51,913 nt of DNA from positions 1 through 51,913 of the forward strand of contig ONJT01000018.1 in NCBI GenBank assembly GCA_900318245.1, read 5' to 3'. Below, piece by piece: positions 35,921-41,675 of the stretch. Position 1 is the first letter of the stretch. The number at the start of each line of letters is the position of its first letter. Under the pieces are notes generated by a model. That model saw nothing but the letters and a program-made list of their open reading frames with translations, made no database searches and was not told the origin of the DNA. The stretch comes from an uncultured Bacteroidales bacterium. GTDB lineage: Bacteria > Bacteroidota > Bacteroidia > Bacteroidales > Paludibacteraceae. Position numbers and translations under genes: made by a program.

Positions 35921-37617
35921 CGTTCCTCCAGCGCGACACATGCCCCTTCGGCGGTCAGCACGAAGAGTGTGTCGGGAGCACGATAGTCGGAAGAGAAGAT
36001 ACTGCGAGTACGCATAACCGCGTTACTCGCAGTGTCGTTTGTATAGCTCAGTCCCGCCGCGTCGAGCAGCGAGGCGAAGAGGACCGATGAGTTGTCGTAA
36101 GCGCCTGCATGTGCGTGCAGCTGCGCGATTTTCTCCGGGTGCAAGGCCGCGTATTCGTCGCTATACCATACGATCAGCGGCACATGGAACAACCATCGGC
36201 TGGCGCTGTAGTTGCCGTGCAGCACTAAGTTCCGCGCATCGTCGTAGAGGTTCTCGCCATGGTCCGCCATATAGAGCACCACGGCGGGGATATGTTGCTG
36301 CGCCGCGAGCGCGCAGACGGAGTCGATAAACCGGTCGGTATAAAGTATCGTGTTGTCGTAGGCATTTACCAGCCGTTCGCGGTTCTCCGGCCGAATCATC
36401 GAGAGTTGGAAATCCGAGCCTAAGGCAGGTGTAAACTGCTCATACTCAGGCGTATAGCGACTGTCATAGCGCCAGTGACTTCCCATCGTATGCAGCACGA
36501 TGAACTGCTTCTTCGCCCCTTCGCTCAAGCACTGCTGCAGGGGCGCTAAGAGCAGACCGTCGTAGTTATTCGTGACACTCATATCTTTGCCTGTCTCGTA
36601 GGTCTGATCCACCGCGTGCTTGACGCGTTCGGTGCAGAGGATGCGTGCCTGATTGGTCAGCCACGTTGTGCTGAATCCTGCTTCTAGGAAGGCTTCGGGC
36701 AGACTCTTCTCTTTCCATACGTCCTCATGCCGGGTGACCGGAACGCGGCTGAGCATATGCGGCAAGGACTGCTCGGTCGTACCTGCCTGCGCGTAGTGAT
36801 GCGGATAGGAGACGAGGTTGGTTCGTTGCATCAGCCGCGGAGTGGTGTTGCGCGCGTACCCGTTCAGGCCGAAATGCGTGCTGCGTGCGGCTTCGCCGAT
36901 GATGAGGATATAGCATTCGGGTTCGGTGTCTGCGGGTGCACTTATCCCGAATCGGAAGGGTTGCAGCGCCTGCTCCATACGCTTGCGTTCCCGCCGTTCT
37001 TTTGCGATCCGGACGGAGTTGAGGTAGATGTTGTACGGGTATATCTTATGGCCTTTCAGCAGCACTAACTCGGTCGCGAGCGAAGTTACTTCACGGGGAC
37101 GTTGGAGGTGGTAGAGGCGGCGCGCATAGACGCTGAAGAAAAGGATTGCCGCGAGCGCCAGAACCGGTAGACCGATGACGGCCGCCCATAAGCCGATGCG
37201 CCGATTCATCATCCTTTCGTTCGGTTGGCGGACGGCCAGGATAAAATAGAAGACCCACACCGTGAGCCATAGTACCACTAGCGGCCATGCCGCACCGAGC
37301 ACACCGACCGCTTCATGCGCGTTGGTCGCGTATATCAAGCCCACAAACGTGGTGGTAGCAGGGTTATGGTTGAGATATAGACTGGCGAGTTCGATCGGTG
37401 CGCACCACATCGTCAGTGCGCCTAGGACGAGGAAATACACCCGTTGGCGAAGGAAGAGCATCGGTATACACGCGCCGACAGCCACGACCAGTAGGTACGC
37501 CAACACCTTCAGCGGCGAAGCGAGGTCGCTGGCCATGAAGCAAGCGTAGACGTTCGGGAAGAGCAGTATCAGAAAGAGTACCGCGCTGCGAATGATCGTT
37601 GGTACTTTGTTCGACAT
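35917..37617 (-). CDS. EptA-like phosphoethanolamine transferase (sulfatase family)
   Basis: 566 residues. Five transmembrane helices at ~10-165, then a periplasmic alkaline-phosphatase-fold domain. Metal/catalytic sites match the EptA/MCR type: IIGEAARSTHFGLNGYARNT (metal-binding Glu), QAGTTEQSLPHM (candidate nucleophile Thr), YMADHGENLYDD and LHGNYS. Such enzymes add phosphoethanolamine to lipid A phosphates, reducing polymyxin binding. The acceptor cannot be fixed from sequence. Its ATG overlaps the TGA of porZ, so it is translated from the porZ message. Confidence 0.85.
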   Translation of the reverse strand: MSNKVPTIIRSAVLFLILLFPNVYACFMASDLASPLKVLAYLLVVAVGACIPMLFLRQRVYFLVLGALTMWCAPIELASLYLNHNPATTTFVGLIYATNAHEAVGVLGAAWPLVVLWLTVWVFYFILAVRQPNERMMNRRIGLWAAVIGLPVLALAAILFFSVYARRLYHLQRPREVTSLATELVLLKGHKIYPYNIYLNSVRIAKERRERKRMEQALQPFRFGISAPADTEPECYILIIGEAARSTHFGLNGYARNTTPRLMQRTNLVSYPHHYAQAGTTEQSLPHMLSRVPVTRHEDVWKEKSLPEAFLEAGFSTTWLTNQARILCTERVKHAVDQTYETGKDMSVTNNYDGLLLAPLQQCLSEGAKKQFIVLHTMGSHWRYDSRYTPEYEQFTPALGSDFQLSMIRPENRERLVNAYDNTILYTDRFIDSVCALAAQQHIPAVVLYMADHGENLYDDARNLVLHGNYSASRWLFHVPLIVWYSDEYAALHPEKIAQLHAHAGAYDNSSVLFASLLDAAGLSYTNDTASNAVMRTRSIFSSDYRAPDTLFVLTAEGACVALEER

Positions 37618-40600: not shown

Positions 40601-41675
40601 ATGTCGCCGGAGCAGTCGGGTCGGCGGCGCCTAAGGTGTTATCGTCCGAGGCGATGAACCGCTGTACGCATTGTGCGCCGCGGAACTCATACAGCCCCGT
40701 GCCGTAACTCGTCACGAAATAATGATCTTTATCCTTCGGATCTACCGCCACATTGACGAAGTCCAGCACTTTGTCGGCCGGCGACGCCGCGATCGAGTCT
40801 GTTGGGATATTCAACCAGTGCTCGCCGTCGTAGCGCATCACCGCACCCGGACGCTCGTACTGCGCAGTCCATCGGCCGCCTTGCACGACGAACAACTGAC
40901 CTTGGTCACAACGTACGGAATAGGGAATGTTACTCAGCGGACCTTCGGGCTTGTAACTCATGCGCTCGGTAACTGTCTCACGCACTATTCCTTCCGCATG
41001 GCCGGCATACCAATCGCTCAACTCGTCCTGGTAATGAATACCCTTGTTCGGATCCGGGGCAATACGCGCCGAGCGTTTCTCGCGCTTCCAGAAATGGTAG
41101 TCCACGAGGTTATCCGTCAACTTCGCGCAATAGAGACTGTCGTCCGCGAAGGCATAGATACTATCGCTCGTCAGCAGCACATCTTTGATAGGCGTCACTT
41201 CGCCGTTCGGACGCAGCCAGTAGCTGTCCGTGAAACGGTGGTCGCGCAGGTCAAACAGCTGCACACCATAGTGGGTGGAGAGGTACGCAATACGGCCATG
41301 AATTGTGATGTTGTATATCGTCTTCTCCTGCGTCATGTCTTTGTTATACAGGTCGCTGATATACTTCACGCCGCGATCGTTCATCAGGTCAATACGTCCT
41401 GCCTCGTAGGCGATGATCAGGGTCTGAGACGTCTCGTCGTAACCGAGACAGGTGATGTTCGTGCCGTGCAGGCCCGACTGGCGGTTATATACCTTCAGTT
41501 TCTCTGTCTGCTTGTCGACGCTATAGAGGCTGCCGTCCGACATCGCATACACTTTGTCGGGCGTCATCGCGATCTGCGTGACGTTGTTATACGCGAAGTA
41601 CGAAGTCCATTCTCCTGCGAAGCCGGGAAGGCTCAACAGCAGACCAAGCACGATGTATGTAAGTCGTTTAATCAT
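37617..41675 (-). CDS. porZ: PorZ-like T9SS surface protein, double length by internal duplication
   Basis: 1352 residues; known PorZ is ~780. Signal peptide 1-20 (LPGFAG). Residues ~21-610 and ~613-1265 are two copies of the same two-propeller unit: both start W....Y.N.TQ.A..P...YA..DGSLY, both contain LFLLDDGGTP or VFLLDDGGTP and G(I)WVGTD / IWLGTES blades, and both end with G.GNGLAAY or GTGKGIASY. One C-terminal T9SS-like domain follows (~1271-1352: AYPNPVRPNYGG ... GVYTALCNADGG ... VKILVIR). PorZ sits on the cell surface with the T9SS attachment complex and binds anionic LPS. Four propellers are unusual. Operon with rdgB (8-base overlap) and the transferase. Confidence 0.88.
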   Translation of the reverse strand: MIKRLTYIVLGLLLSLPGFAGEWTSYFAYNNVTQIAMTPDKVYAMSDGSLYSVDKQTEKLKVYNRQSGLHGTNITCLGYDETSQTLIIAYEAGRIDLMNDRGVKYISDLYNKDMTQEKTIYNITIHGRIAYLSTHYGVQLFDLRDHRFTDSYWLRPNGEVTPIKDVLLTSDSIYAFADDSLYCAKLTDNLVDYHFWKREKRSARIAPDPNKGIHYQDELSDWYAGHAEGIVRETVTERMSYKPEGPLSNIPYSVRCDQGQLFVVQGGRWTAQYERPGAVMRYDGEHWLNIPTDSIAASPADKVLDFVNVAVDPKDKDHYFVTSYGTGLYEFRGAQCVQRFIASDDNTLGAADPTAPATYTRLDNASFDAQGNLWLLDAGEVPYQLVCFDADRQWHGVPLVVGSEQIALHTPAGLILDQQNANYKWMATARYNTALFLLDDGGTPFDTSDDKAIGRNEWVTEDGHAVTATTIHALMQSADGRIWVGTDVGIVIIDPTTDYFSSDLCTRPDLTDNNGENPMTELKITALCEDAEGQIWVGTASLGIYVLNSSATEIIAHYTTDNSSMASNAILSMSCDEQGKIYIGTGNGLAAYDPASIPEHNFSTTDEDGRELGSIEQWRLRLSYTNPTQVAASPTRIYALADGSLYYFDRASEQIEYISKATGLNGSSIVRIAYDSPSEQLIVAYEDGRIDLVDEEGNVRQMPDLHLKASSLSVVINSISSGKKYAYLAMSFGIIAINPKKAEIADTYYIGEDANAINVDYVVEYGDSLFAFTDGYMYSAALRDNLVDYSYWHKTALPAGAVTNAFIFRNTLHLLLHNYLYSRVNGVWGRIGSTVMQWLHYEGGQLLASISGKLFRINNDYTFVGLTDQYAFNDALYSLGEYWLAEENFGLIRLNTSGDQPYHTDGPNSNMGYFIHTAHGRVYTANGGRWSTQFMRYPHLNSYDGLSWKRINPWELRASDGIWAIDPVSIAVDNADPERFYIATYTAGVFEYNHGAITRYGVNNSTLDVAEAGADPQYYTRTDGVMMDEQGNLWVLNATTVGYPVHVMTPNGQWHALDEQSGGQNIVLTTPTGIWTDRRSTKRKWFLDQRYSPGVFLLDDGGTPTDASDDRCFKRSTFVDQNNNTLNPSYFFCFAQDHTDRIWLGTESGIIVIPAKTDFFTSNSCRRIIIPRNDGTGLGDYLLGDEQINCMAVDGGNRMWIGTANSGLYLIEDDTITVAHFTEDNSLLPSNNILSIAIVPTTGEVFVGTGKGIASYRSDASEAQKDMSQAYAYPNPVRPNYGGNIAITGLMENTVVNIVDAAGNLVCKTKSHGGTAIWDGKLWDGRRATPGVYTALCNADGGHTVVKILVIR

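What the first reader, a model, noticed from the sequence alone, without database searches (positions are those of the whole stretch)
37617..41675. porZ is an in-frame tandem duplication: four propellers, one T9SS C-terminal domain
Residues ~21-610 and ~613-1265 repeat the same unit end to end: start motif with DGSLY, CLGYDETSQTLIIAYEAGRIDL against RIAYDSPSEQLIVAYEDGRI, LDDGGTP blades, and the closing GTGNGLAAY / GTGKGIASY. Known PorZ has two propellers and one C-terminal domain. The halves are clearly diverged, so the duplication is old and retained, not an assembly repeat. PorZ anchors the surface complex that cleaves T9SS signals and attaches cargo to A-LPS. A doubled PorZ could bind two LPS chains or two partners, and it occurs beside many cargo proteins with an atypical tail.
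Basis: partly seen in the sequence, partly recalled or inferred. Interest (0 to 1): 0.75.

Follow-up and report, generated by a model that had tools for sequence, protein, structure and literature searches.

The report
PorZ doubled within one gene
In a group of gut bacteria, mostly known from ruminants, a surface protein that helps anchor secreted proteins has been doubled head-to-tail inside one gene; the rear copy looks like the normal protein while the front copy is conserved but changed and seems to have been lost again in some species.

Summary
The 1352-aa ORF (37617-41675, minus) is PorZ with its two-propeller unit repeated in frame: residues 21-612 and 613-1265 align end to end (197 of 577 identical, 34%), followed by one C-terminal domain. 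It is not an assembly error. Of 151 genomes searched in the genus, 142 have PorZ above cut-off: 82 doubled, 51 single, 9 other or unresolved. The listed rows of the family and order surveys show no doubled PorZ outside the genus. The halves are not equivalent. The C unit keeps PorZ's conserved residues and a signature loop. The N unit forms one separate clade, is under purifying selection, lacks that loop (0 of 49 keep both motifs), and its first propeller is usually about two blades short, so 'four propellers' means three full and one reduced. Five single PorZ genes still carry a distinctive inter-unit linker behind the signal peptide, two more a weaker trace, so the N unit was probably cut out again. 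In one genome it is a separate gene. PorU, PorV and PorQ are single in 32 of 32 genomes (PorU split in one). I think the C unit performs the known A-LPS delivery and the N unit is a specialised accessory binding module; that function is inferred.

The parts
37617..41675 (-). doubled porZ gene, 1352 aa plus stop
41616..41675 (-). N-terminal hydrophobic signal peptide, residues about 1-20 (read from sequence; no predictor run)
39840..41615 (-). N unit, residues 21-612
40929..41582 (-). N-unit propeller 1 (about residues 32-249): four blades by my count of modelled strands plus a low-confidence remnant; about two blades shorter than the C unit's
39891..40928 (-). N-unit propeller 2 (about residues 250-595), seven blades by my count of modelled strands, the last closed by an N-terminal strand (residues 22-27) in the longer model only, at low confidence
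   Evidence: compare 5M11 in PMC5121618
40326..40358 (-). Ca-site-like loop of the N unit, residues 440-450
39831..39890 (-). linker between the units, about residues 596-615
37881..39839 (-). C unit, residues 613-1265, PorZ-like throughout
39090..39290 (-). C-unit blades 5-6 of propeller 1 (about residues 796-862), the stretch mostly missing from the N unit
38346..38378 (-). Ca-site-like loop of the C unit, residues 1100-1110
38061..38183 (-). signature loop of the C unit (about residues 1165-1205), not kept in the N unit
37620..37880 (-). single T9SS C-terminal domain, residues 1266-1352
41668..42339 (-). Ham1/RdgB-family NTPase gene, the usual upstream neighbour of porZ

Best explanation
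An in-frame tandem duplication of the two-propeller part of porZ arose early in one genus of Paludibacteraceae, at the ordinary rdgB-porZ locus (shown by sequence, tree and synteny). The C unit with the CTD remains the working PorZ: secreted by T9SS and, by homology, binding A-LPS and handing it to the PorU sortase (inferred). The N unit diverged, lost the signature loop and usually about two blades of its first propeller, but stays under purifying selection; I infer it is an accessory glycan- or partner-binding module carried on PorZ, for example a second surface that captures or holds the polysaccharide, not a second equivalent delivery site. It appears dispensable in some lineages, where it was deleted and left the linker behind the signal peptide, and it can be found recombined or standing alone as a module.
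For: Repeat, families and CTD. Distribution. One origin of N units: clade 98* in FastTree, 100/97* in IQ-TREE. Singles lie among C units; a C-only clade (22 rows, T units counted in, L143_C left out) is rejected, p-AU 4.9e-07, though the group was named after the tree was seen. Linker scars. Same locus: the Ham1 gene lies in the fetched flanks of 13 of 14 named doubled, 32 of 35 unnamed doubled, 27 of 28 single and 27 of 30 other-genus loci. Constraint: NG86 dN/dS 0.04-0.10 for N (5 of 6 pairs; the sixth had no usable dS) and 0.06-0.12 for C (6 of 6). C unit canonical, N unit not: 73 columns conserved in outgroups and in C+S, of which N keeps 45, keeps 9 in part, does not keep 19; both signature motifs in 42/49 C, 25/29 S, 30/30 other genera, 3/3 reduced PorZs, 0/49 N. 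Outgroup PorZs in the listed rows align to the C half of the doubled profile. Free N-unit gene in G091. Partners ordinary but for one split PorU.
Against: No binding or genetic data for this protein were found or made here. Outside the family only 6 of 28 sampled PorZs show both signature motifs in the aligned window (26 of 28 show NRxW), 4 of 49 N units do show NRxW, and P. gingivalis PorZ itself departs from the motif (alignment), so losing the loop does not prove losing A-LPS binding. Of the 19 columns counted as not kept, 6 still have the same commonest residue below 50% and several changes are conservative. dS exceeds 1 in several of the dN/dS pairs, so those ratios are rough. The loss reading assumes deletion is likelier than repeated insertion of an N unit between signal peptide and linker; L143 (G004), whose N and C units fall in different clades, shows modules can move (or is a chimeric assembly). 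Of 29 singles, 22 carry no scar that I recognise and some may never have been doubled.
Confidence: 0.5

Rival explanations
1. Bivalent PorZ: both units bind A-LPS alike, so one PorZ carries two chains or bridges two PorU complexes.
For: Both units keep the two-propeller plan and, in the window, the Ca-site-like loop; both are under purifying selection.
Against: 0 of 49 N units keep both signature motifs; 19 of 73 universal columns are not kept; propeller 1 is reduced in 38 of 49 N units; PorU, PorV and PorQ are not doubled in 32 genomes.
Confidence: 0.17
2. Division of labour: after duplication one intact propeller 1 is enough, and the two units together do the work of one PorZ.
For: In 48 of 49 doubled proteins at least one propeller 1 is of full or nearly full length; when the C unit is the reduced one (L122) the N unit is full, and in G091 a reduced PorZ coexists with a separate full N-unit gene. 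Reduction was seen in 0 of 29 singles and 0 of 58 outgroup units.
Against: L123 has both reduced; in G065 and G073 a reduced PorZ was found but no free N-unit gene (completeness 76% and 95%); in the other doubled proteins examined the C unit alone already looks complete.
Confidence: 0.2
3. Neutral ratchet or spacer: the N unit is a tolerated structural extension that lifts or orients the C unit.
For: Probable repeated loss; loss of blades and conserved residues.
Against: dN/dS well below 1 and near the C unit's; N-unit mean column identity 67% across 14 sequences.
Confidence: 0.11
4. Assembly artefact or misjoined adjacent genes.
For: Two adjacent, separate PorZ genes do occur elsewhere (G314). 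The split doubled ORFs L036/L128 (one and the same sequence) and L127 lie next to runs of N.
Against: The same ORF in many separate assemblies, halves only 34% identical, N and C clades that largely mirror each other.
Confidence: 0.01

Closest known systems
PorZ of Porphyromonas gingivalis (PG1604, PDB 5M11)
   Same: two-propeller unit, Ca-site loop, single CTD; C unit and CTD align along the chain
   Different: here the two-propeller unit is repeated once more ahead of it; 1352 against 776 residues (length of PG1604 from PMC5121618)
BT4663-type hybrid two-component sensor domains (4a2l, 3v9f, 3ott)
   Same: two tandem propellers; next best fold matches after 5m11, two of them also by sequence; likeness to PorZ and carbohydrate sensing noted in PMC5121618
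   Different: a Y_Y_Y domain in place of the T9SS CTD (PMC5121618)
Adjacent separate PorZ genes in another family of the order (G314)
   Same: tandem duplication of porZ
   Different: two genes, not fused

Membership tests
T9SS PorZ (NF052228) | over the curated cut-off of 260 bits | tested here: met
   982.7 bits for the whole protein; the C unit's match alone 590.9 bits
T9SS PorZ (NF052228) | two propellers followed by one T9SS CTD | tested here: met
   C unit plus CTD matches profile 22-757 of 757; the extra N unit is an addition; the generic CTD model TIGR04183 is just below cut-off
T9SS PorZ (NF052228) | usual place beside Ham1/rdgB in this family | tested here: met
   window genes
T9SS PorZ (NF052228) | A-LPS binding and delivery to PorU | not testable with these tools
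   known for P. gingivalis from PMC8545088 (passages read)
N unit as a functional PorZ unit | second-propeller signature loop conserved in the family | tested here: not met
   0 of 49 N units have both motifs
N unit as a functional PorZ unit | Ca-site residues of propeller 2 | tested here: met
   loop present in the window; four tested ligand positions kept together in 34 of 49 N, 48 of 49 C, 27 of 29 S, 29 of 30 other-genus and 11 of 28 other-family units
N unit as a functional PorZ unit | seven-bladed first propeller | tested here: inconclusive
   about 66 residues shorter over blades 5-7; the models give four blades and a low-confidence remnant

The most novel reading that the evidence does not exclude
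The N unit is a new, recombinable T9SS module derived from PorZ that gives the attachment complex a second, different specificity (another surface polysaccharide or a different partner). It is kept, lost, swapped between species or set free as its own secreted protein according to the surface glycan each species makes, with its first propeller repeatedly cut by about two blades.
Probability: 0.35. Interest if true: 0.75.

Novelty: new variant of a known kind. Interest (0 to 1): 0.5.

Why it matters
PorZ is reported as an essential T9SS component in P. gingivalis (PMC5121618, abstract), and the passages I read do not say which propeller holds the glycan or touches PorU. Nature has here separated a conserved C unit from a diverged N unit, cut blades at the same place in both unit lineages, and deleted or freed the N unit in others. 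Comparing these variants points to which surfaces the core job needs: the signature loop of the second propeller stays with the CTD-bearing unit even in the reduced PorZs whose first propeller is cut down (3 of 3).

Tried and rejected
Assembly artefact: rejected. Doubled PorZ in other genera or families: none in the listed rows (about 150 rows each; weaker rows are not shown, so rare cases could be missed). Altered PorU, PorV or PorQ: not seen, except PorU split in G004 (32 genomes). Gene conversion restoring blades 5-6 in the 93-94-residue N units: not supported (8 of 10 tested: own-C identity 0.15-0.30 there against 0.35-0.40 elsewhere). One origin of all blade reductions in the N unit: weakly rejected (p-AU 0.028 with L123, 0.04 without), with groups named after the tree was seen; yet the reduced N units that I printed, L123 apart, read alike across the deletion, so one main origin is still possible. 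Genus name: not resolved; the nearest named records are uncultured Bacteroidales or Paludibacteraceae MAGs, several from goat, sheep or water buffalo gut by their titles. Literature on a doubled PorZ: nothing in the listings of four searches of the held PMC library; passages read in PMC5121618 (also abstract), PMC8545088, PMC7323717 and PMC9218822; one search guessed a wrong genus and found nothing; one search was on propeller evolution.
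Full report
WHAT IS THERE. The ORF at 37617-41675 (minus) encodes 1352 residues. Residues 21-612 and 613-1265 are two copies of one two-propeller unit: BLASTP 302 bits, E=1e-97, spanning both halves; global alignment 197 identical of 577 aligned, score 860 against -96 +/- 22 for 200 shuffles. The protein scores 982.7 bits against NCBIfam T9SS_PorZ (cut-off 260) in three stretches, the C unit plus CTD covering profile 22-757 of 757; the generic CTD model TIGR04183 reaches 21.8 bits of the 23 needed. 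Pfam PorZ_N_b_propeller matches twice; the best solved relative is 5m11. In 5M11 the domains are propeller 1 (39-322), propeller 2 (29-34 plus 335-679) and CTD (692-776), with a Ca site at D520-D530 (PMC5121618, passages read).

WHERE IT OCCURS. The genome has one porZ, this one. In 151 genomes searched in the genus (the window's own included), 142 have a match over cut-off; tallied from the listing, 82 have open frames above 1200 aa, 51 have single-size frames (769-955 aa), 3 have a reduced single gene (712-744 aa), 2 are split (993 and 1001 aa, beside runs of N), 2 are cut by contig ends (457 and 479 aa), and 2 (G117, G120) are not in the listed rows; 2 further genomes have weak matches only and 7 none. 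In the family (200 genomes, 32 genera) and order (392 genomes, 204 genera) no listed frame outside the genus exceeds 901 aa. A profile of the doubled protein, run over 393 genomes of the order, matched along both halves only in the window's genome and G113 among the listed rows; the other listed rows, including the single-PorZ congener G051, match from position 588-696 to near the end, that is the C half. Eighteen loci in named records were found in genome contigs, titled Paludibacteraceae or Bacteroidales bacterium; 14 hold a full-length doubled ORF (55-90% identity in the best segment), L036 one split by Ns, and three are cut by contig ends.

HISTORY. A FastTree of 189 units put all 49 N units, with the free-standing N unit of G091, in one clade (98*). 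An IQ-TREE of 67 units gave 100/97* for that clade, placed three singles and L143_C as the first branch of the genus (100/98*), and nested other singles among C units (100/100* and 100/99* clades). A tree holding C units (T units counted in, L143_C left out) apart from singles is 343.6 log units worse, p-AU 4.9e-07, the group having been named after the first tree was seen. The junctions suggest the direction. Singles L006, L023, L027 and L149 carry TSE[DE]NW[TS]YG just behind the signal peptide, as the doubled relative L135 does in its linker, and L024 has a one-residue variant. The three reduced PorZs L124, L125 and L126 share SGMMNGWT or TGMMNGWT with the linker of doubled L122. A weaker trace, YGSM, links singles L007 and L025 to doubled relatives such as L130 and L132; YGSM occurs in the linker of 7 doubled ORFs. 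The other 22 of 29 singles show no scar that I recognise. I read this as removal of the N unit from doubled genes, well marked in two lineages and likely in a third; repeated insertion is the less simple alternative. L143 (G004) has an N unit from the window's clade (100/100* with L134) and a C unit from the earliest branch, a recombinant or a chimeric assembly. Window against L034 has synonymous divergence 1.09 in N and 0.19 in C, again as if units recombine separately. The locus is ancestral: a Ham1/rdgB gene lies in the fetched flanks of 27 of 28 single, 13 of 14 named doubled, 32 of 35 unnamed doubled and 27 of 30 other-genus porZ loci, and of none of the four loci (three genomes) with a reduced PorZ or free N unit (flanks of unequal length).

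THE UNITS DIFFER. Of 73 columns conserved in at least 85% of outgroups and of C+S units, N units keep 45, keep 9 in part and do not keep 19; of these 19, 6 still have the same commonest residue below 50%. The second-propeller loop (about RNDGT.L.DYLL..E.I..I..DG.NR.WIGT in C units) is present by two motifs in 42 of 49 C, 25 of 29 S, 30 of 30 other-genus and 3 of 3 reduced PorZ units, in 6 of 28 other-family units (26 of 28 have NRxW), in 0 of 49 N units (4 have NRxW) and in 0 of 1 free N unit (it has NRxW). Yet N units are not decaying: dN/dS 0.04-0.10 in five of six close pairs (the sixth without usable dS), C 0.06-0.12 in six; dS is above 1 in several of these pairs, so the values are rough. 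N is less identical than C in 914 of 1128 genome pairs, median divergence ratio 1.05 (L143 left out).

BLADES. Over blades 5-7 of propeller 1 the span is 115 residues in C (median), 117 in S, 124 in other genera; 49 in N (median), 50-51 in the reduced PorZs and L122_C, 53 and 57 in L123's two units; ten N units have 93-94 and L122_N 121. By occupancy 38 of 49 N units, 2 of 49 C units and 3 of 3 reduced PorZs are cut, against 0 of 29 singles, 0 of 58 outgroup units and 0 of 1 free N unit. The AlphaFold2 model of the N unit (pLDDT 73.7, pTM 0.59, 14 sequences) gives, by my count of strands, four blades, a low-confidence stretch, then a seven-bladed propeller 2; the 1200-residue model (residues 21-1220, pLDDT 73.7, pTM 0.42) shows about seven blades in the C unit's propeller 1 and, at low confidence, an N-terminal strand (22-27) where 5M11 has its closing strand. 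Placement of units against each other is not reliable at this pTM. Foldseek against PDB ranks 5m11 first for the N unit (E 1.4e-34, TM 0.52 by query, rmsd 16.3). The library for a second structural aligner was not available.

PARTNERS AND NEIGHBOURS. In 32 genomes picked for completeness (18 doubled or odd, 14 single), PorU and PorQ each have one match over cut-off in 32 of 32; the PorV-family model has one strong match (359-403 bits) in each, its weaker second match lying at the PorQ gene. PorU is full-length in 31 and split into two frames in G004. In G091 the N unit is its own gene with a signal peptide (read from sequence) and a short tail like those of three window ORFs, followed by a glycosyl transferase family 4 gene (WecA-like, below the NCBIfam cut-off) and then the reduced PorZ. 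The window's downstream neighbour resembles phosphoethanolamine transferases but is below every NCBIfam cut-off; a similar gene is found at 7 of 14 named doubled, 10 of 28 single, 7 of 35 unnamed doubled and 1 of 30 other-genus loci.

HOW IT MOST LIKELY WORKS. PorZ of P. gingivalis binds the phosphorylated branched mannan of A-LPS and, more tightly in its presence, PorU (PMC8545088, passages read). The C unit plus CTD looks like that protein in the family, motif and synteny tests made here. The N unit, being on the same chain, is expected to be secreted with it and to sit at the attachment complex (inference). Lost signature, purifying selection, probable repeated loss and free-standing existence fit a specialised accessory binding module best; symmetric bivalency, division of labour and a mere spacer remain open. 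Which ligand it binds cannot be read from sequence.

Noticed in passing
L120 and L121 (G056, G075): The ORF that holds doubled porZ begins about 200 residues early (1592 and 1558 aa); the extra part is a Ham1 domain in L121 and starts alike in L120. A lost stop or a sequencing error; a cytoplasmic enzyme ahead of the signal peptide would be odd.
   Followed up: partly
L150 (G314), 1135-3426 and 3512-5797: Two adjacent, separate PorZ genes in another family of the order: an independent tandem duplication without fusion.
   Followed up: partly
L006 and L149 (G054): One genome with two single porZ genes on different contigs, both with the linker scar; the genome is listed at 6% contamination.
   Followed up: partly
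window 1332-4814, 4798-6639, 10761-12806 (minus): Three ORFs end in a similar short tail (about GxLxxxxxxxxYxxxGxxxx), also seen on the free N-unit gene in G091; read by eye.
   Followed up: partly
L126 and L162 (G091); compare L125 (G073): The reduced porZ lies beside a glycosyl transferase family 4 gene; L125 has an unsearched ORF of the same length (430 aa) in the same place. In L162 an ORF resembling polysaccharide-export proteins (recalled, no search run) lies on the other strand upstream.
   Followed up: partly
G004:C63: PorU (sortase) is split into two frames in the genome whose porZ is the apparent N/C recombinant.
   Followed up: no
window 35917-37617 (minus): Sulfatase-family protein resembling phosphoethanolamine transferases, directly downstream of porZ.
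   Followed up: partly
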